Source: Ruania alkalisoli (lineage in GTDB: Bacteria > Actinomycetota > Actinomycetes > Actinomycetales > Beutenbergiaceae). Taken from it: DNA of 64,000 nucleotides. Positions 24,225-32,461 of the stretch are shown here, piece by piece. Position 1 is the first letter of the stretch. The number at the start of each line of letters is the position of its first letter. A model generated the notes under the pieces. That model saw only the letters and a list, made by a program, of their open reading frames with translations, was not told the origin of the DNA and made no database searches. The stretch covers positions 3,815,581 to 3,879,580 of the forward strand of contig NZ_CP063169.1 of NCBI RefSeq assembly GCF_014960965.1, written 5' to 3'. Made by a program: the position numbers and the translations under genes.

Positions 24225-25061
24225 CTAGCGCCTCGCCGCTGGTTCCTCGGCCAGCGAGACCAGGTGGGCGTGCGCGTACTCGCACACCAGCGCGTGCCGG
24301 TAGACGAGCTGCGGGACATCCACATTGGTGTCCATCCACAGACTCAGGCCGCCCATCTTCCAGTGTTTGAAGGTCTCATCCTTGGTGAGCACGGCGAGGA
24401 TCTCCAGGAACGAATCGTCGAAGCGCAGCGAGTGGATCGCCCGCCGGAACTCCTCCAGGCTCAGCGCGATGCAGAAGGGGATGTTCATCAGGCACAGCGC
24501 GGTCTGGATGTCCAGGCGCATCAGCCGGGGGTGCTTGCGCTCGGGGTCGAGAGGCGGCACGTCGAGGTGGGAGACGTCCAGGTGTTCCGGCGCTTCGATA
24601 TCCACGCCCTCCAGCGCGATCAGCACGTCGTAGACGTTGATGTCGTGCTCGACCACCGCATTGTCGCCCAACCCGGCCAACGTCGTCGGGCGGAGCGTGA
24701 CCGGCTCGATGTCCGCCGGGGTGTTGCGGATGATGAAGTTCACCAGGTTGGTCTCCACCACGAAGTGGCGGATCAGCAGCTCCACGGCATCTGGCGCCAC
24801 GAAACGGCGCAGGAACCACAGGCACAACGCGTCCATCGTGCTCAGGGGCATCCACCGGCCGGGGACCAACCGCTTGAGGATGGAGATCACGGCCACGAGA
24901 ACCCGCGAGACGATGCGTGCGATCGGGTAGAGGTAGCGCCGGGACACCCGCCGCTGGTCCTTGATGATCATCCGCACCAGTGGGCGATCGAGGGGGATGG
25001 AGGGGTCGGCGTAGATCGCCTCCCACATGCTGGGGTCGGACTTGACGAACTCCGGCGGCAT
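24225..25061 (-). CDS. Uncharacterised protein of the KAS III/diiron-protein operon
   Basis: A 278-aa protein I cannot assign. It begins MPPEFVKSDPSMWEAIYADP, then has a strongly hydrophobic or amphipathic stretch around residues 43-68 (YLYPIARIVSRVLVAVISIL) flanked by Arg/Lys, suggesting membrane association. A helical core follows with RHFVVETNLVNFI and the segment HDINVYDVLIALEG. ATG at 25061 is two bases after the stop of the haem-oxygenase-like gene, so the operon order is KAS III, diiron-like protein, this protein. The open frame continuing upstream to 25688 is an antisense-frame artefact over the previous gene. It may anchor or deliver a lipid substrate; this is inference. Confidence 0.75.
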   Translation of the reverse strand: MPPEFVKSDPSMWEAIYADPSIPLDRPLVRMIIKDQRRVSRRYLYPIARIVSRVLVAVISILKRLVPGRWMPLSTMDALCLWFLRRFVAPDAVELLIRHFVVETNLVNFIIRNTPADIEPVTLRPTTLAGLGDNAVVEHDINVYDVLIALEGVDIEAPEHLDVSHLDVPPLDPERKHPRLMRLDIQTALCLMNIPFCIALSLEEFRRAIHSLRFDDSFLEILAVLTKDETFKHWKMGGLSLWMDTNVDVPQLVYRHALVCEYAHAHLVSLAEEPAARR

Positions 25062-25063
25062 CG

Positions 25064-25762
25064 TCAGATCACGTCCAGCTCGGTCAGTTGCAAGGCGTAC
25101 AGGCGGGCCACCACCCGGGCGCAAGAAACGATCGCGTCCGCCGCCGCGGCGTCGATGCGGTCGGAGGTGAGGATCGCATCGAGCTTGCCGGTGTGCTCGG
25201 CATCGGCCTCCTGGTGATAGGTCATGAAGTGGACCTGGTTGTCCGCCAGGCCCAGCACCTCCTGGAACTGCTGCGCCCACTCCGCGGCCTTCTGCGCACC
25301 CAGCCCTTCGATGATGAACATCGCCCCCAGGCACGCGATCGGGTTCGGCTGGTTCGCCTGGTGAAACATGTAGCCCGAGAGCGCCTGCGAGCCGACGTTC
25401 TTCCGCCCCGACCTCAGTTGGTCGAGCGACCCGCCGACGGCCACGTAGTCCCGTTCCAGCAGCAGGTGGTCGCGATGCTCCTCCAGTGCATGGGAGATCG
25501 CAGCCGAGCGCAGGTCGAAATGGTCCATATCGAAGTTCGACGCCGCCCGCGCGATCCACAGCGACCCGTCCACCACCTGCTGGCGCAGGTTGTGCAGCAG
25601 GCACTGGTAGTCGGCCACGGTCACGTCGCCCTCGCGGAGCGCCCGCAGGATCGGCACCACGAGCAACCGCTCCTCGAACTCGGCCCACACATCGGCCAGC
25701 CGGGCCAGCAGACTGGTCTCGTCGTGCTCGGGTGGGCGGTATCCCTCAACGGTGGCGCTCAT
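25064..25762 (-). CDS. Haem-oxygenase-like diiron protein (TenA/CADD/UndA superfamily)
   Basis: A 232-aa all-helical protein. Third-helix ligands H183-x3-D187-x2-H190 are clear, with E152 in IIEGLGAQ and H96 in ALEEHRDH as further candidate metal ligands. This matches the ligand layout known for haem-oxygenase-like diiron oxidases (CADD, SznF). Such enzymes use O2 to cleave, desaturate or decarboxylate amino- or fatty-acid-type substrates. It overlaps the KAS III-like gene by four bases and is followed by an unknown membrane-associated protein. The substrate is unknown; a redox function is inferred from the ligands. Confidence 0.8.
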   Translation of the reverse strand: MSATVEGYRPPEHDETSLLARLADVWAEFEERLLVVPILRALREGDVTVADYQCLLHNLRQQVVDGSLWIARAASNFDMDHFDLRSAAISHALEEHRDHLLLERDYVAVGGSLDQLRSGRKNVGSQALSGYMFHQANQPNPIACLGAMFIIEGLGAQKAAEWAQQFQEVLGLADNQVHFMTYHQEADAEHTGKLDAILTSDRIDAAAADAIVSCARVVARLYALQLTELDVI

Positions 25763-26889
25763 CGGCTGCTCCTTCGTGGTTCAACAACGGTCAGGTGGGC
25801 GAATCCGAACGAGAACCGCCCGGACTCGGGGACTGCGAGCAGGATTGTCTCTCCCGCGGAGAACCGCCCGGTACGCCAGGCCTCCTCCAGGGCGATGAAG
25901 ATGCTGGCCGCGCCAGTGTTGCCGCAGGTCTCGAGGTTGGAGAACCAGCGGTTCGTGTCCAGTCCGGGGACCCGGGTGCTGAGGGCATCGAAGACGACAT
26001 CCCGGAAGGCGTTGGTGCTGTAGTGGCAGATCACGTGGTCGAGCTTTGTCAGATCCACCAAGCCGCGATCCACCAATTCCTCGAACTGGGCCAGCCCGGC
26101 CGCCGCGAGCTCATCGAGCACCTTCGTCTCCTGCCGGATCTGCAGCAGCCCCGCCTTCTCGGCGGTCGCCACGTCGGCGTAGTCCTGCCATGTGCTCCCC
26201 GCGACCGCGGAAGGCCCGTCGAGGCCAGCACGCATACACACCTCATGCTCGTGGGCGAGAGAGACCTGGCGCACCCAGTCCACCCGGAGCGAGGGCCGAT
26301 CCGGACGAGGCTGGAACTCCACGATCGCAGCACCTGCGCCGTCGGAGAGCATCCACCGCAGGAAGTGGGCATCCAGATGGTCGGTGACGCCATCAAATCG
26401 CCGCTGGTGCAGCCAGCGGCTGGCCAGCTCCGAGCCCACGACGGCGGCCCGTGGGTGGTCTCCGAGCCTCACCTTGCTTACGGCCGCGTCGAGCGCAGCG
26501 ATGCTGGAGGCGCACACACCGGCGGCAGTGAGTACCTGCATCGGGCCGCCGCCGAGCCGCCCGTGCACCATCGAGGCGAAGCCGGGGACGAGCAGATCAC
26601 CCTGGGTGGTGGCGCAGGCGAGCATGCCGAGATCGGCGGCGGCGATGCCTCGATCCGCCAGCGCAGCCTCGATCGCGTGGACGGCGAGCTCTTCGTTCAG
26701 CTCGGTGGTGCGCCCGTCGGTGTCCATCGCGTAGTACCGCTGCCGGATGCCGTTGGCGTTCTGGATGCGGGCGCGGATCCGCTCGGTGCGCTTGTCGACG
26801 CCGCCGAGTCGGCTGGCGACCTGGTCATTGGAGACCGGCTCGCCGGGGAGGTACCGGCCGAGTCCGGTGAGGTATGCGGTCGCTGGCAT
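25759..26889 (-). CDS. 3-oxoacyl-ACP synthase III-like (KAS III/thiolase-fold) enzyme
   Basis: A 376-aa thiolase-fold condensing enzyme. The KAS III catalytic triad is complete: C126 in TAAGVCASS, H289 in ICHYSTN and N324 in TCGNTGAAS. The enzyme is longer than FabH (about 320 aa), with an expanded region near residues 195-270 (WVRQVSLAHEHEVCMRAG). This points to a secondary-metabolism or OleA-like acyl condensation or transfer rather than housekeeping fatty-acid initiation. The start is placed at the ATG at 26889 (MPATAYLTGLGRYLPG). The neighbouring diiron-like and unknown proteins indicate a dedicated short pathway. Confidence 0.88.
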   Translation of the reverse strand: MPATAYLTGLGRYLPGEPVSNDQVASRLGGVDKRTERIRARIQNANGIRQRYYAMDTDGRTTELNEELAVHAIEAALADRGIAAADLGMLACATTQGDLLVPGFASMVHGRLGGGPMQVLTAAGVCASSIAALDAAVSKVRLGDHPRAAVVGSELASRWLHQRRFDGVTDHLDAHFLRWMLSDGAGAAIVEFQPRPDRPSLRVDWVRQVSLAHEHEVCMRAGLDGPSAVAGSTWQDYADVATAEKAGLLQIRQETKVLDELAAAGLAQFEELVDRGLVDLTKLDHVICHYSTNAFRDVVFDALSTRVPGLDTNRWFSNLETCGNTGAASIFIALEEAWRTGRFSAGETILLAVPESGRFSFGFAHLTVVEPRRSSR

Positions 26890-27053: not shown

Positions 27054-27602
27054 TCAGCCCAGCGGATCCCGCCCGATGAACCCCAGCAACCGCGTCTGCA
27101 CGTCTGAGCCTTCCGGCACGTCCACCCGCGGACCGTACTGGCCGCTCGCGCGGATCAGCTCCTCGATCGGCTCCATCCCGCGAAGCAACTCCCGGCACTT
27201 CTCAGGATCCAGCCTTTCGTCCTGCCCCGTCGCACGCGCCAGGTCCCACGTGTGCATGAAGACGTCGGCGGTATAGAACCGATCGATCGCCTGGGCGAGC
27301 GGAAGGTCCCCGGTATGGGGATCGGAGAAGGTGAGCTCCGCCGTCGCCGGATCATCGAGCAGTTCCTGCACGCCGTCGGCGTGTACCTGCCAGGCGGCCA
27401 CAGGATCGGCATCCACATCGCCGGCGGGCAACTCGATCCCGGCACCCGCCTTGAGGAATCCGGGAAACCAGGTCACGAGGTGACGCACCACGTCCCGCGC
27501 CGCCCAGCCGTCCACCGGCGCCGGGGCATCCCAGTCCCGGGTGCCACGCACCCGGTCGGAGAACACCCCGGCGATCCGGCGATGCTCCTCGGCGGGAGTC
27601 AC
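27054..27602 (-). CDS. TIGR03086/DinB-like metal-binding protein
   Basis: A 182-aa helical-bundle protein of the MDMPI/TIGR03086 type. It has GWAARDVVRHLVTWFPGFL near residue 35 and the C-terminal FMHTWDLARATGQDERLD segment with the metal-binding His. Likely a mycothiol- or metal-dependent small-molecule transferase; substrate unknown. The start is the GTG at 27602, overlapping the SRPBCC stop (GTGA). Third gene of an ArsR-SRPBCC-TIGR03086 operon; this trio is common in Actinobacteria. Confidence 0.85.
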   Translation of the reverse strand: MTPAEEHRRIAGVFSDRVRGTRDWDAPAPVDGWAARDVVRHLVTWFPGFLKAGAGIELPAGDVDADPVAAWQVHADGVQELLDDPATAELTFSDPHTGDLPLAQAIDRFYTADVFMHTWDLARATGQDERLDPEKCRELLRGMEPIEELIRASGQYGPRVDVPEGSDVQTRLLGFIGRDPLG

Positions 27603-28081
27603 ACCGCGCCCTCGGCGAGCAACTCGTCGAGCTTCTCGTAGCCCTCGTTGATGCCGACCTCCATACCGCTGGCGAGCATGCCCTGCTGCGCCTCCATCGA
27701 CTCCACGATCGACTTCGAGACGATCCGGCACCGGCCACCCTCGAGCGGCTCGAACGTCATGATCTCCAGGGCCACGGCCTCGCGCATCTCCTCGAACCCG
27801 AAGGTCTGTACGAGCTTCTCGCCCGGGATGGCGTCATGGAAGCAGCCGAAGAAGTGCGCCACCACCTCACCGTTCTGGATGGCGTTGTAGCGGTAGCTGC
27901 CCCCGGTCTGGCAATCCCAGGTCGCGATATCCATCTCGACCGACCGCGGACCCATCCACCGCTTGACCAGCTCCGGCTCGGCCCAGGCGCGGTAGACCCG
28001 CTCCGGCGGGGCGTCGAACTCGCGGGTGATCGTGATGACGGGGATGTTGGGGTCGGCCTCGATCTGCGCTTCCTTGCTCAT
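27599..28081 (-). CDS. SRPBCC/AHSA1-family protein
   Basis: A 160-aa START-like (SRPBCC) ligand-binding protein. The sequence ITREFDAPPERVYRAWAEPELVKRWMGP is the typical AHSA1 opening, with GGSYRY and EGGRCRIVSKSIVESMEAQQGMLASGMEVGINEGYEKL at the C-terminus. It binds hydrophobic small molecules in a deep cavity. ATG at 28081 overlaps the stop of the upstream ArsR gene by four bases. Confidence 0.9.
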   Translation of the reverse strand: MSKEAQIEADPNIPVITITREFDAPPERVYRAWAEPELVKRWMGPRSVEMDIATWDCQTGGSYRYNAIQNGEVVAHFFGCFHDAIPGEKLVQTFGFEEMREAVALEIMTFEPLEGGRCRIVSKSIVESMEAQQGMLASGMEVGINEGYEKLDELLAEGAV

Positions 28082-28455
28082 GATGCTGCTCCTTCGTTGT
28101 TGATGACCCTGGGGGTCGTCGGGGTGGGATTCTCTTCGTCGGCCATGTCGGCCAGTACTGCGTCCAGGCGTTGGAAGCGTTCCTCCGCCTCGCGCCGGTA
28201 ACGCTCGATCCACTTCGTCATCAGGCTGAGCACCTCGGCTTCCAGATGAACCGGCCGCTTCTGCGCTTCGCGGCGACGGCTCACCAGCCCGGCATCCTCG
28301 AGCACGCGCACATGCTTGGACACCGCCTGCAGGCTCATCTCGTACGGCTCCGCCAGGTCGCCAACCGTCTTGTCGCCCGAAGCAAGGCGCGCCACCAGGT
28401 CCCGCCGCGTCTCGTCGGCCAGGGCCTGGAACACCCGGGACAGCTGATCCGCCAC
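28078..28455 (-). CDS. ArsR-family transcriptional regulator
   Basis: A 125-aa winged-helix repressor (VFQALADETRRDLVARLASGDKTVGDLAEPYEMSLQAVSKHVRVLEDAGLVSRRREAQKRPVHL). No metal-binding cysteines are seen; this is the SRPBCC-associated ArsR type that senses an unknown signal. The GTG start at 28455 is supported by GAGGAGG eight bases upstream; longer open-frame starts lack one. First gene of a three-gene operon; two TCAACx-type palindromes bracket its promoter. Confidence 0.92.
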   Translation of the reverse strand: MADQLSRVFQALADETRRDLVARLASGDKTVGDLAEPYEMSLQAVSKHVRVLEDAGLVSRRREAQKRPVHLEAEVLSLMTKWIERYRREAEERFQRLDAVLADMADEENPTPTTPRVINNEGAAS

Positions 28456-28468
28456 AAGACTCGCCTCC

Positions 28469-28484
28469 TCAACTGATTGGTTGA
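28469..28484. promoter_or_regulatory. ArsR operator, proximal copy
   Basis: TCAACTGATTGGTTGA is an imperfect palindrome (TCAACY-N4-GGTTGA) lying downstream of the predicted -10 and overlapping the leader and ribosome-binding site of the arsR gene. Confidence 0.65.
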
Positions 28485-28492
28485 ATACGACG

Positions 28493-28521
28493 AGCGTAGG
28501 GGTGGACTCGACCACTGTCAA
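28493..28521 (-). promoter_or_regulatory. Predicted promoter of the ArsR-SRPBCC operon
   Basis: On the minus strand a perfect TTGACA (28521-28516) is followed by 17 bases and TACGCT (28498-28493). The -35 overlaps the distal palindrome, and the proximal palindrome lies just past the -10, so a bound repressor would block it. Confidence 0.65.
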
Positions 28522-28533
28522 CCTTTTGGTTGA
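28518..28533. promoter_or_regulatory. ArsR operator, distal copy
   Basis: TCAACCTTTTGGTTGA has perfect 6-bp arms and is followed by the same ATAC as the proximal copy. The two copies are 49 bases apart centre to centre. Confidence 0.65.
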
Positions 28534-28594
28534 ATACAGGTGATCGACTGACACAGGTTCGGCAGACGTCCCCGGGCACGGGGTACGTTGACGT

Positions 28595-29878
28595 ATGCGT
28601 TCCGCCGAGCACACCATCTGGTGGCACGTCTTTCCCCTGGGTTTCCTGGGAGCGGACACCACTGGCACCGACCGCACGCCGGCCACGCGGCTGCCCGCAT
28701 TGATCAGCTGGCTGGACCACCTGCTCGAGCTGGGGGCGAACGGGCTCGCACTGGGCCCGGTGTTCGACTCCTCCACGCACGGCTACGACACCATCGACTA
28801 CTTCCGCATCGATCCGCGCCTGGGCACCGAGGCCGATCTGGTCGCGCTCATCGATGCCGCCCACAGCAGGGGAATCCAGGTGATGCTCGACGGCGTGTTC
28901 AACCATGTCGGCCCCGAGTTCCCTGCGTTGCTCGCCGCCCGCGAGGACCCCTCCTCCCCCGAGGCGCGCCTGTTCGCACAGACTCCCGACGGCGGACCGG
29001 TCACCTTCGAGGGTCACGGCGGCTTGATCACGTTGAACCATGGTGTACCCGAGGTGGCCACGTTGGTCACTGATGTCATGACCTTCTGGTGCGACCGGGG
29101 TGTGGATGCGTGGCGTCTCGACGCCGCCTACAGCGTCCCGGTGGAGTTCTGGACCACGGTGCTGCCCGCCGTCCGCGAGCGCCACCCGCAGGTCTACGTG
29201 ATGGGCGAGGTACTGCACGGCGACTACGTCGCATTCACCCGTGACGGCGGTCTGGACGCCGTCACCCAGTACGAGTTGTGGCAAGGCATCTGGCACTCCA
29301 TCGCCGACCACAACTTCCACGAACTCGACCACGCACTCGGCCGGCACAACACCTTCCTGGAGGCGTTCGTGCCCTACACCTTCGTGGGCAACCACGACGT
29401 GACGCGCATCGCCAGCCAGATCGACGACGAGCGTCACCTCCCGCACGCGCTCGCGCTGCTATTCACGCTGGGTGGCACGCCGTCGGTCTACTACGGCGAT
29501 GAGCTGGGCCTGCACGCGGTCAAGGAGGAACGGTTCGGAGGGGACGATGCCATCCGGCCCGCATTCGGTGCCAGCCGCGACGAGATCGACGGCGCGAAGC
29601 CGGAGGTGTTCACCCTGCACCAGGAACTCATCGGCCTGCGCAGGCGGCACCCCTGGCTACACACGGCGCGAAGCCGGACGGTCGCCGTCGGCAATGACAC
29701 GATCGCCCTGGAGGTGGCCGGGCCGGAAAAGGCGCTGATCGTGGTGCTGAACATCGGCGACGGCGAGGTACGTACCTCCGGCGCAGGCACCTTCCTGGCC
29801 GGCCGCGACGCCGGGCTCGATGGTGAGGACCTGGTCGTCGGCCCGCACGGCTGGGCGATCGCGGAGGCGACTGCCTAG
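28595..29878 (+). CDS. Alpha-amylase family glycoside hydrolase (GH13)
   Basis: A 427-aa cytosolic GH13 enzyme. The catalytic residues fit the family: nucleophile D176 in DAWRLDAAYS, acid/base E205 in VMGEVLHGD and transition-state D268 in FVGNHDVTR. The beta-2 region is LDGVFNHVG. The (beta/alpha)8 barrel is followed by a short C-terminal beta-domain. At 427 residues it is short for GH13 and lacks a signal peptide, suggesting action on internal alpha-glucans or oligosaccharides; specificity is not evident. No Shine-Dalgarno is seen before the ATG. Confidence 0.92.
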   Translation: MRSAEHTIWWHVFPLGFLGADTTGTDRTPATRLPALISWLDHLLELGANGLALGPVFDSSTHGYDTIDYFRIDPRLGTEADLVALIDAAHSRGIQVMLDGVFNHVGPEFPALLAAREDPSSPEARLFAQTPDGGPVTFEGHGGLITLNHGVPEVATLVTDVMTFWCDRGVDAWRLDAAYSVPVEFWTTVLPAVRERHPQVYVMGEVLHGDYVAFTRDGGLDAVTQYELWQGIWHSIADHNFHELDHALGRHNTFLEAFVPYTFVGNHDVTRIASQIDDERHLPHALALLFTLGGTPSVYYGDELGLHAVKEERFGGDDAIRPAFGASRDEIDGAKPEVFTLHQELIGLRRRHPWLHTARSRTVAVGNDTIALEVAGPEKALIVVLNIGDGEVRTSGAGTFLAGRDAGLDGEDLVVGPHGWAIAEATA

Positions 29879-29897: not shown

Positions 29898-31307
29898 TCA
29901 CACCCGATCGCGGCGACGCGTCCGCAACTGAGCCGCCGCCACGAGCGCCACACCGCCGGCGATCAGCGTGAGGCCGACCGTTGACGCGGTCACCCCATCG
30001 ATCCATCCGCCCGTGTCAGGCAACGTGCCGGAGCCGTCGTCCCCGCCGGGCTCGGAGGGCTCCACCGGCCCGGGGGATGCCGAGGGTCCAGGGGTGGGGC
30101 TGGGTACCGAGGTCGGGGTGGGGGTGGGAGTGGGAGTCGGCGTGGGTGTCGGCGTCGGCGTCGGGGTGGGCGTGGGGCCCTCTTCACGGCAGGTCAGCTC
30201 AGCGGCGAACGGGAAGTCATGCACTTCGCGCGGCACCCCCGGCGGAGCCTGGGCCGGGATGCCATGGATGAACGATGCGGCGATCACGTTCCCGGCGATG
30301 TTCTGAGTGACCTGCCAGTTGAGCTCGGCGTGGGGCGCATAGATCGTCCCGTTCACGCTGTCGCCCCCATTGATGACGACGGAGGTCGCGTCGACGAAGT
30401 TGTAGAGGATCGACGGCGCATCCGCCTCTCCGACTCCGGCCTGGTTCGGGAACGCGCCCGCGAACGAGGTGCCGAAGACGTTCACCAGCAACGGTGAGGA
30501 TGCGGTGGGCGGGTCCGGAAAACTGATCTCCGCGGTGTTCGCCAGGTCATCGGTGGTGATGTTCAGGACGTTGGTCTGGTCGGGCTCGATCGGCAGGCGC
30601 ACGTTCGCCCCGGGGGCGAGGGGGGACGTAACCGGGGAGCCGTCGTCGCGGTTCAGCAGTTGCACAGTGGAGGCGCATTGACCGAGCAGCGTGGATGTCG
30701 GCCGGTAACGCTCGAACGCCGTCTCGATGTCGACCAGGTCCGCTGGGACTGGAGCACTGATGGAGGCAGGCGACTGCGGCGAGGTGAGATCGATACGTGG
30801 CGGGTTCGACTCGTAACTCCCCCCGGGCGGCACGACACGGGCGTTCACGTTCGCCCCGTTCGAGTCGGTGTTGAAGGTGTCGTAGGTGCTGGTGTCAGCG
30901 ATCTTCACGTACCCGCCGCCGAGCACCGAGAGCACCTGGGGCCCGCCGGACCAGTCCACCCCTCCCCCGACGAACAGGGCCACCGGAACAGTGTCGCCGG
31001 GCGCCGTGAAGGTCTCGCGTGGGCTCATGACGTTGTACGAGGACGCAAACAACAGATCCCCACCGAGAGCCAGTGTTCCTTCGGCTTCATCGGCGTTCAG
31101 CTGCACATCCCCTTCGACGAACACCAGGAAATCGCTGTTTGCGGGGCGCTCGGACGTCGACTGCCCAAGTGGATAGGTCACCGGGTTCAGCGGTCCGATG
31201 GTGTCCCCTGGTGCGGCCACGGCCGATGAGGTCGCCAGGAGTATGGCGCCAACAGCAGCCAGGAGCCCTCCGGCCATCGTCGTGCGGTGACGTGGCTTGT
31301 GCAACAT
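29898..31307 (-). CDS. LPXTG-anchored choice-of-anchor-A surface protein
   Basis: A 469-aa secreted wall protein. It has a Sec signal (TMAGGLLAAVGAILLATSSAVAA), then a choice-of-anchor-A type domain (about residues 40-350: NSDFLVFVEGDVQLNADEAEGTLALGGDL to NGTIYAPHAELNWQVTQNIAGNVIAASF). A Pro/Thr repeat stalk follows, then the sortase motif LPDTGG, a transmembrane helix and an RTRRRDRV tail. Sortase would link it to peptidoglycan. Such domains are found in adhesin- or matrix-type proteins; the ligand is unknown. ATG at 31307. It converges with the GH13 gene. Confidence 0.88.
   Translation of the reverse strand: MLHKPRHRTTMAGGLLAAVGAILLATSSAVAAPGDTIGPLNPVTYPLGQSTSERPANSDFLVFVEGDVQLNADEAEGTLALGGDLLFASSYNVMSPRETFTAPGDTVPVALFVGGGVDWSGGPQVLSVLGGGYVKIADTSTYDTFNTDSNGANVNARVVPPGGSYESNPPRIDLTSPQSPASISAPVPADLVDIETAFERYRPTSTLLGQCASTVQLLNRDDGSPVTSPLAPGANVRLPIEPDQTNVLNITTDDLANTAEISFPDPPTASSPLLVNVFGTSFAGAFPNQAGVGEADAPSILYNFVDATSVVINGGDSVNGTIYAPHAELNWQVTQNIAGNVIAASFIHGIPAQAPPGVPREVHDFPFAAELTCREEGPTPTPTPTPTPTPTPTPTPTPTSVPSPTPGPSASPGPVEPSEPGGDDGSGTLPDTGGWIDGVTASTVGLTLIAGGVALVAAAQLRTRRRDRV
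30113..30180. repeat. Tandem hexanucleotide-like repeat coding the PT stalk
   Basis: About eleven imperfect GT(C/G)GG(C/G/A) units encode alternating Thr-Pro in the stalk of the LPXTG protein. Such repeats change length by slippage and would alter stalk length. Confidence 0.7.
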
Positions 31308-31477
31308 ACCTGCATCCTCGCTCACGAGTCGGCGAACTTCTAGTCCCCTTCGATCGACGTGCAACCGAATGCGACTTCCTCGTTGTGCTTGATCGAGGCG
31401 TACGGGAGCGCAAGACTGTTGCCGTCGGGGGCACACCATCTGCGCCCTGCGCCTGCATCGACCGGAAGGATCCCGTG

Positions 31478-32461
31478 ATGTGCACGAGAGTCGTCTACCT
31501 GGGTGAAGGTGACCGCATCATCACGGCGCGGTCGATGGACTGGAACGTGGATCTGGGCACCAATATCTGGCTGTTCCCCCGGGGGATGAAGCGCGATGGC
31601 GCCGCCGGCCCCCACTCGATCACCTGGACCTCTCGCTACGGCAGTGTCGTCTCCAGTGCCTACGAGCTGGCAACCGCCGATGGCATGAACGAGAAGGGAC
31701 TCGTCGCCAATGCTCTGTGGCTGGTCGAGTCGAAGTACCCGGATCTGCACGCGAATGAGCCCACACTCTCGATCGCTGCATGGGCACAGTACGCCCTCGA
31801 CAACTTCGCGACCGTCGCCGAAGCGGTCACGGAACTCTCCGCCGAGACATTCATCGTCGCCACCTCCACCGTGCCTGGTCAGGACCGGGACGCCACGATG
31901 CATCTGGCCTTGTCCGATTCGAGCGGGGACAGCGCCATCTTCGAATACCTCGACGGTGAGCTCACGGTCCACCATGATCGGTCCTACCAGGTGATGACGA
32001 ACTCGCCGCCCTATGCTCAGCAGTTCGCGATCAACAGCTACTGGGACGAGATCGGCGGCACCGTGATGATGCCCGGCACCAATCGTGCCGCCGACCGGTA
32101 TGTGCGGGCGAGTTTCTACGTCAACGCCGTCCCTCAGGTCGAGGACCGCACTATTGCGACGGCCGCCGTGTTCGGCGTGATCCGCAACGCTTCGGTGCCC
32201 TACGGAATCTCCACACCGGGCCAGCCGAACATCTCCTCCACGCGGTGGCGCACCGTGGCCGACCACAAGGACGGCCGCTACTACTTCGACTCGGTGCTCT
32301 GGCCCAGTGTCATCTGGGTCGACCTGAGCGACCTCGACTTCTCCGAGTCGGCACCACCACAGAAGCTCGACCTCACCGGGGGTCTGCCGCCGGCACGCGG
32401 CGGCGACGCGTCGGCGCTCTTCGAGCCTGCCGCACCCTTCCCGTTCGCCGGCCCCGAGTGA
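31478..32461 (+). CDS. Linear amide C-N hydrolase (choloylglycine hydrolase/Ntn family)
   Basis: A 327-aa Ntn hydrolase. Removal of Met exposes the nucleophile Cys2 (MCTRVVYLG), followed by the RSMDWNVDLGTNIW motif of the bile-salt-hydrolase/penicillin-V-acylase family. Members cleave linear amides such as N-acyl amino acids, N-acyl-homoserine lactones or bile-salt conjugates. ATG at 31478 is preceded by GGAAGGA; an earlier in-frame GTG at 31475 would bury the Cys and is unlikely. No signal peptide is seen. It converges with the SDR gene. Confidence 0.9.
   Translation: MCTRVVYLGEGDRIITARSMDWNVDLGTNIWLFPRGMKRDGAAGPHSITWTSRYGSVVSSAYELATADGMNEKGLVANALWLVESKYPDLHANEPTLSIAAWAQYALDNFATVAEAVTELSAETFIVATSTVPGQDRDATMHLALSDSSGDSAIFEYLDGELTVHHDRSYQVMTNSPPYAQQFAINSYWDEIGGTVMMPGTNRAADRYVRASFYVNAVPQVEDRTIATAAVFGVIRNASVPYGISTPGQPNISSTRWRTVADHKDGRYYFDSVLWPSVIWVDLSDLDFSESAPPQKLDLTGGLPPARGGDASALFEPAAPFPFAGPE

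What the first reader, a model, noticed from the sequence alone, without database searches (positions are those of the whole stretch)
24225..26889. KAS III-like enzyme, haem-oxygenase-like diiron protein and an unknown protein in one coupled operon
Seen: three minus-strand genes with overlaps or gaps of only two to four bases. The first keeps the full KAS III triad (C126, H289, N324) but is longer than FabH. The second carries H183-x3-D187-x2-H190 plus E152 and H96, the ligand pattern of haem-oxygenase-like diiron oxidases such as CADD and SznF. The third is unrecognised, with a hydrophobic stretch near residues 43-68. Known: such diiron enzymes cleave or desaturate fatty or amino acids using O2. 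Inference: the KAS III-like enzyme makes or transfers an acyl unit, which the diiron enzyme then modifies, with the third protein as membrane partner. This is the best candidate in the window for an undescribed pathway.
Basis: partly seen in the sequence, partly recalled or inferred. Interest (0 to 1): 0.72.

Follow-up and report, generated by a model that had tools for sequence, protein, structure and literature searches.

The report
Conserved ketosynthase and iron-oxidase gene trio
Three neighbouring genes in an actinobacterium form a small unit kept together in many relatives but not described in the papers searched; it probably joins two fatty-acid units and oxidises the product with oxygen, and in some relatives the first two genes are fused into one protein, which suggests the two enzymes work hand in hand.

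Summary
All three genes lie together, same order and strand, in 48 of 49 loci of a genome scan; the exception carries a deletion scar. HDO and DUF6999 occur in the same 6 of 394 sampled class genomes. Pseudoalteromonas THAF3, a gammaproteobacterium, has the same trio. In four Glycomyces/Phytomonospora loci ketosynthase and HDO are one in-frame protein of about 604 aa. Gene 1 is a sub-threshold relative of the StlD/DarB cyclising ketosynthases, not FabH. Gene 3 is DUF6999: no fold match at E <= 0.001, no paper found, invariant His/carboxylates on several helices. Best reading: a ketosynthase-oxidase module making an oxidised ring or beta-dicarbonyl lipid, possibly a dialkylresorcinol with the HDO replacing DarA. 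Product, cofactor and DUF6999 role are inferred. New variant of known kinds; interest 0.6.

The parts
25759..26889 (-). KAS III-fold ketosynthase, StlD/DarB-like (P0001, 376 aa)
   Evidence: NF005293 StlD/DarB 327 bits (cut-off 450) versus TIGR00747 fabH 82 bits; best solved relatives StlD 5gk0 and 5gk2; C126/H289/N324 in 50 of 50 rows
25064..25762 (-). Haem-oxygenase-like dimetal oxidase candidate (P0002, 232 aa)
   Evidence: PF14518 47.2 bits over cut-off 28.9; AF2 pLDDT 93.9; Foldseek 3dde TM 0.84, CtCADD TMt 0.86, UndA TMt 0.64
24225..25061 (-). DUF6999 protein (P0003, 278 aa), all-helical model, fold without match
   Evidence: PF22523 312 bits; AF2 pLDDT 83.1; no PDB or BFVD match at E <= 0.001
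25759..25762 (-). ATGA start/stop overlap between ketosynthase and HDO genes
   Evidence: sequence; same 4-base overlap in 33 of the 44 unfused loci among L015-L062, and fusion in 4 of the 48 (start codons chosen by script)

Best explanation
The three genes encode one small biosynthetic module. The StlD/DarB-like ketosynthase joins two fatty-acyl-type thioesters (Claisen, probably with Michael ring closure) to a 1,3-cyclohexanedione or similar beta-dicarbonyl. The HDO, acting directly after it and in some species fused to it, activates O2 at a metal site and oxidises that product. DUF6999 is a third component kept with them, possibly itself metal-binding. The most specific version, which I put at about 0.25: a DarB-type product, 4-carboxy-2,5-dialkylcyclohexane-1,3-dione, loses the C5 hydrogen and CO2 in an UndA-like oxidative decarboxylation and becomes a 2,5-dialkylresorcinol, so the HDO stands in for the DarA aromatase. 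Shown: synteny, fusion, co-occurrence, families, folds. Inferred: substrate, order of steps, product, metal and DUF6999's role. The 0.6 is for the general version.
For: Trio intact in 48 of 49 scan loci; with Pseudoalteromonas this is 12 named genera plus the window. KS-HDO in-frame fusion in 4 of 48 loci, linkers differing. HDO and DUF6999 in the same 6 of 394 class genomes; trio-grade KS (718-744 bits) in the same 6. Same order in Pseudoalteromonas THAF3 at 42/44/26% identity. Pairwise identities of the three proteins correlate at 0.86-0.91 over 49 rows without Pseudoalteromonas; 0 of 999 permutations as high for HDO-DUF6999, the pair tested. No other gene family in more than 6 genera around the trio at the settings used. 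KS nearest to StlD. DarB and StlD make cyclohexanediones (PMC5515871, passages); UndA turns fatty acids into 1-alkenes plus CO2 (PMC13108848, passages).
Against: No product, no assay. P0001 is under the StlD/DarB curated cut-off. The HDO departs from the usual ligand set at one position, so its nuclearity and even metal binding are open; TenA and haem oxygenase proteins share the fold too. The Pseudoalteromonas HDO gives no Pfam match at E 0.01. No conserved ACP, acyl ligase or 2-enoyl supplier is linked to the trio. A KS tree does not show the trio KSs as one clade: a Streptomyces KS without an HDO falls among them (80/65 support); one clade is neither shown nor rejected (p-AU 0.332). Distant KSs occur without HDO or DUF6999 beside them. 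3 of 7 other genomes of the window's genus in the sample lack the HDO.
Confidence: 0.6

Rival explanations
1. The KS makes a linear beta-keto acyl chain and the HDO cleaves or decarboxylates it, giving a hydrocarbon, methyl ketone or other volatile, as UndA does with fatty acids; no ring is formed.
For: UndA is among the fold matches and makes 1-alkenes from fatty acids (PMC13108848, passages); no conserved aromatase or ACP beside the trio.
Against: The nearest KS relatives are ring-forming StlD/DarB; that UndA needs no KS partner is recalled.
Confidence: 0.17
2. The KS is an acyl-transfer type KAS III that loads an acyl group onto a small molecule or amine, and the HDO oxidises the nitrogen or carbon of that acceptor.
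For: Characterised HDOs act mainly on fatty- and amino-acid substrates (PMC13108848 section 4); that KAS III folds can do acyl transfer is recalled.
Against: Full Cys-His-Asn triad invariant in 50 of 50 rows, as in condensing enzymes; no further conserved gene in the unit.
Confidence: 0.1
3. The HDO is a protective or metal-handling protein, as is one proposal for DtpC, and the KS adapts membrane lipids; the link is a stress regulon.
For: DtpC, an HDO-domain protein, supports Acinetobacter desiccation tolerance redundantly with KatE (PMC13232832, passages); the trio is patchy, 6 of 394 class genomes, and lost in Ruania rhizosphaerae, as for an accessory trait.
Against: KS-HDO fusion in four loci points to sequential catalysis.
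Confidence: 0.08
4. Chance neighbours, or housekeeping FabH beside unrelated genes.
For: None found.
Against: fabH model 81.6 bits against cut-off 292.1; conserved synteny, fusion and co-occurrence.
Confidence: 0.01

Closest known systems
StlD / DarB cyclohexanedione-forming ketosynthases
   Same: Best family and best solved structures; triad, length and E154 align with StlD.
   Different: 327 bits against the curated 450; paired with an HDO and DUF6999, whereas in Azoarcus darB lies beside darA, listed as the aromatase, with darC, an ACP, nearby (PMC3949708, passages).
Haem-oxygenase-like dimetal oxidases (CADD, UndA, SznF, BesC; PF14518)
   Same: Pfam cut-off met and fold shared; E152 and H183-x3-D187-x2-H190 kept.
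   Different: Canonical second alpha-1 ligand His is an invariant Asp98 by alignment, with an extra invariant His91; coupled or fused to a ketosynthase, a word that does not occur in the main text of the 2026 HDO review.
3dde (Sden_3740, Shewanella denitrificans, unknown function)
   Same: Closest fold, TM 0.84 over 216 columns, 18% identity.
   Different: Has His at the D98 position; gene context not examined.
DUF6999 (PF22523)
   Same: Gene 3 is a clear member, 312 bits.
   Different: The family had no paper, no solved relative by sequence and no fold match in what was searched.

Membership tests
HDO (PF14518) | Pfam score over cut-off | tested here: met
   47.2 bits, cut-off 28.9; the Pseudoalteromonas homologue gives no match at E 0.01
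HDO (PF14518) | Haem-oxygenase helical fold | tested here: met
   AF2 pLDDT 93.9; 3dde, CtCADD and UndA among matches at E <= 0.001, with TenA and haem oxygenases as well
HDO (PF14518) | 3H/3C ligand set; E-H-X-H-D/E-H motif in about 85% of analysed groups (PMC11363339 section 10) | tested here: not met
   E95, E152, H183, D187, H190 fit; second position is D98, not His, in 50 of 50 rows. Sequence alignment only
HDO (PF14518) | Dimetal cofactor and O2 activation | not testable with these tools
   needs protein and spectroscopy
CADD family (TIGR04305) | curated score cut-off 200 | tested here: not met
   17.6 bits
StlD/DarB ketosynthase (NF005293) | curated score cut-off 450 | tested here: not met
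   327.3 bits; Pseudoalteromonas trio KS 372.1; a Prevotella KS reaches 492.1
StlD/DarB ketosynthase (NF005293) | Cys-His-Asn catalytic triad | tested here: met
   C126, H289, N324 in 50 of 50 rows
StlD/DarB ketosynthase (NF005293) | cyclohexanedione-forming activity | not testable with these tools
   needs assay
StlD/DarB ketosynthase (NF005293) | DarA aromatase and DarC ACP partners | tested here: inconclusive
   no further conserved neighbour, but no DarA sequence or model was at hand; one guessed accession was unrelated
Housekeeping FabH (TIGR00747) | curated score cut-off 292.1 | tested here: not met
   81.6 bits
DUF6999 (PF22523) | Pfam score over cut-off | tested here: met
   312 bits, cut-off 27

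The most novel reading that the evidence does not exclude
A ketosynthase-coupled HDO with a rearranged metal site (H91, E95, D98, E152, H183, D187, H190) that aromatises a DarB-type 4-carboxycyclohexanedione by oxidative decarboxylation, an O2-dependent route to dialkylresorcinol-like lipids independent of DarA, with DUF6999 as a third, structurally new metal-binding enzyme of the pathway.
Probability: 0.2. Interest if true: 0.82.

Novelty: new variant of a known kind. Interest (0 to 1): 0.6.

Why it matters
Only about a dozen HDOs have a shown function (PMC13108848 section 4). A free-standing three-gene unit with natural KS-HDO fusions gives a small, testable case of an HDO whose substrate is handed over by a known kind of condensing enzyme, a non-standard ligand position conserved across two phyla, and a first context for DUF6999. 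It would add an oxidase-coupled branch to the StlD/DarB lipid and resorcinol pathways.

Tried and rejected
Housekeeping FabH: rejected on scores. Chance neighbours: rejected. DUF6999 as a distant HDO: profile comparison gives 1.6% probability; the weak Foldseek hits to PolF and haem oxygenases among the 50 of 79 rows listed have E of 2.8 or worse and TM of 0.16 or less, so meaningless. A wider operon: the gene-family count over L015-L064 and 20 kb of the window (ORFs of 110 aa or more, E 1e-20, greedy listing in which groups overlapping an earlier group are skipped) showed no family outside the trio in more than 6 genera; the top two look, by reading, like ABC-transporter and response-regulator proteins at scattered distances; antisense and frame-shifted ORFs inside the trio were set aside by eye. 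Viral contigs: 50 pattern matches, none a relative. DarA: one guessed NCBIfam accession proved unrelated, so DarA's absence is not shown. A first KS tree held a badly cut row (L066, a 699-residue frame) and was dropped; the second leaves the trio KSs neither shown nor rejected as one clade.

Papers seen: PMC13108848 outline, abstract, passages and section 4; PMC11363339 passages and section 10; PMC13232832, PMC11965152, PMC3949708, PMC8406957 and PMC5515871 passages only. The searches were read as listings, several of them capped (15 of 188, 20 of 38, 15 of 734, 8 of 41; one search found 0); none of the listed titles or abstract starts describes this trio. The term DUF6999 gave 0 papers.

Rows dropped: alignments A1 and A2 used 29 rows, the window and 28 of the 48 loci. 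The conservation counts use 50 rows (window, L015-L062, L064), without L063, which has no trio, and without the G-handle relatives L002-L014. The KS trees used 17 and 16 rows.

Full report
What is there. Three minus-strand genes at 26889-25759, 25762-25064 and 25061-24225, with a 4-base overlap and a 2-base gap. The window lies in a 4.45 Mb single-contig genome whose 33019-26997 stretch matches Ruania rhizosphaerae at 90.6% DNA identity, so Ruania or a near genus is inferred.

Gene 1. P0001 scores 327 bits with the StlD/DarB ketosynthase model (cut-off 450), 299 with the DarB model (cut-off 550), 105 with the beta-ketoacyl-ACP synthase 3 model and 82 with fabH. Its best solved relatives are StlD entries 5gk0/5gk1 and 5gk2, E 4e-61 and 9e-60. 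The triad C126/H289/N324 and E154 are invariant in 50 of 50 rows. It is a relative of the cyclising ketosynthases but not a certified member. DarB and StlD are reported to make 2,5-dialkylcyclohexane-1,3-diones (PMC5515871, passages). With P0001 as query the genome shows one other, weak hit (27.8 bits).

Gene 2. P0002 passes the PF14518 cut-off (47.2 versus 28.9). Its AF2 model (pLDDT 93.9) matches 3dde (TM 0.84), CtCADD (TMt 0.86) and UndA (TMt 0.64), but TenA and haem oxygenases match too, so the fold alone does not prove a dimetal site. E152, H183, D187 and H190 are invariant in 50 of 50 rows. The alpha-1 motif reads H91-x2-E94-E95-H96-R97-D98, the named residues all invariant. The profile alignment to 3dde pairs D98 with a His, and three HDOs from other operons read EE-x-G-H at the same columns. 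So the usual E-x2-H is here E-x2-D, with H91 seven residues before D98 and hence on the same helix face (inference from spacing). H96 is two residues from D98 and would point elsewhere. A survey of the 150 largest HDO groups found E-H-X-H-D/E-H in about 85% and no strong prediction in about 9% (PMC11363339 section 10).

Gene 3. P0003 is DUF6999 (PF22523, 312 bits). The AF2 model (pLDDT 83.1, pTM 0.84) is almost all helix and has no match at E <= 0.001 in the PDB or BFVD; the best sequence-profile hit among solved structures has E 1.4. H99, E103, N105, N108, E138, H139, D140, D184, H256 and E261 are invariant in 50 of 50 rows including Pseudoalteromonas at 26% identity. They sit on helices 90-112, 135-150 and 249-272, with D184 just before helix 185-199, a spread that would suit a metal or catalytic site (inference).

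Conservation as a unit. A genome scan with P0003 gave 49 loci; 48 carry all three genes in the same order and strand. The 49th, Ruania rhizosphaerae, keeps the flank upstream of the trio but has only two DUF6999 fragments (76 and 49 bases) and unrelated open frames where the operon would be, a natural loss. Seven of 38 other relatives have the HDO, and all seven have the trio; in the window's own genus 4 of 7 have it and 3 do not. In 394 class genomes DUF6999 and the HDO hit the same 6; the KS profile hits these 6 at 718-744 bits and 3 more at 302-380 bits, and those three have neither partner within the 16 kb fetched. In 396 phylum genomes DUF6999 hits 4. The scan was seeded on DUF6999, so 48 of 49 does not test whether KS or HDO occurs alone; searches do, at the sensitivity of a first look that scored at most 7 and 4 candidates a genome in the rows shown.

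Fusion. In L058, L060, L062 (Glycomyces) and L061 (Phytomonospora) the KS and HDO hits lie in one open frame of 603-605 residues, with differing linkers. Of the 44 unfused loci, 33 have the 4-base overlap (start codons were chosen by script).

Beyond the phylum. The Pseudoalteromonas sp. THAF3 chromid has KS, HDO and DUF6999 in the same order, with a 2-base gap and an 8-base overlap. DUF6999 there scores 322 bits; the HDO, 44-46% identical to P0002, gives no Pfam match at E 0.01. It is the only one of 72,556 plasmid records found with P0003 at E <= 0.001. Among 14 control genomes only Caulobacter vibrioides has DUF6999; it also has PF14518 (2 of 14) and a hit with the StlD/DarB model (9 of 14 ring, 1 over the cut-off and not named, so weak). 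Linkage there was not seen.

Surroundings. At the settings used, no gene family outside the trio is shared by more than 6 of the 13 genera. The module thus has no conserved ACP, ligase or transporter and would draw on the host's acyl pool (inference). Pairwise identities of the three proteins correlate at 0.86-0.91 over 49 actinobacterial rows; the HDO-DUF6999 pair was tested by permutation, 0 of 999 as high. This shows a shared history; it does not by itself show interaction.

How it may work. Fusion, overlap and co-occurrence argue that the KS product passes to the HDO. DarB's product is described as a 4-carboxy-2,5-dialkylcyclohexane-1,3-dione (PMC5515871), and darA is listed as the aromatase of that pathway (PMC3949708). 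[quoted passage not shown] that the beta hydrogen is taken is recalled). The same step on the DarB-type product would give a C4=C5 bond and, by tautomerism, a resorcinol. This is my inference, about 0.25. Against it: no assay, no linked ACP, KS below the family cut-off, a KS tree in which a Streptomyces KS without HDO falls among the trio KSs, and the altered ligand position.

Verdict. Observation confirmed with one ligand corrected; interpretation partly supported. The families are known; the combination and the HDO site were not found described in the searches made. New variant of a known kind; interest 0.6.

Noticed in passing
L073:2885-6565, L074:839-4409, L075:834-4437: A different HDO operon in Variovorax, Pseudoalteromonas and Vibrio: 'thermostable hemolysin'-annotated protein, AMP-binding ligase, HDO, SDR; in P. 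donghaensis the HDO match lies inside the protein annotated AMP-binding, so the two look fused.
   Followed up: partly
L064:13342-13899: A 185-aa, by eye membrane-like protein with several His/Glu clusters ends one base before the KS gene in Pseudoalteromonas THAF3; no Pfam or NCBIfam match. No such family came up around the actinobacterial loci.
   Followed up: partly
L089, L090: In two class genomes of one genus a distant StlD/DarB-like KS lies near open frames that look like type I PKS, ligase and FAD monooxygenase; labels from reading the frames, not from a family search.
   Followed up: no
L076:9712-18150: Streptomyces NBC_00008 plasmid: KS 39.5% identical to P0001 in a cluster with ACPs, FAD monooxygenase, FabF, FabG and P450, no HDO annotated in the stretch.
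   Followed up: no
window 29898-31439: Protein with an ice-binding-like adhesive domain PF20597, a TP-rich stretch and an LPDTG motif near the C terminus.
   Followed up: no
window 31073-32461: Choloylglycine-hydrolase (CBAH, PF02275) family protein.
   Followed up: no
window 27599-28776: ArsR-type regulator followed by an AHSA1-domain protein upstream of the trio; this flank is kept in Ruania rhizosphaerae while the trio is gone.
   Followed up: no
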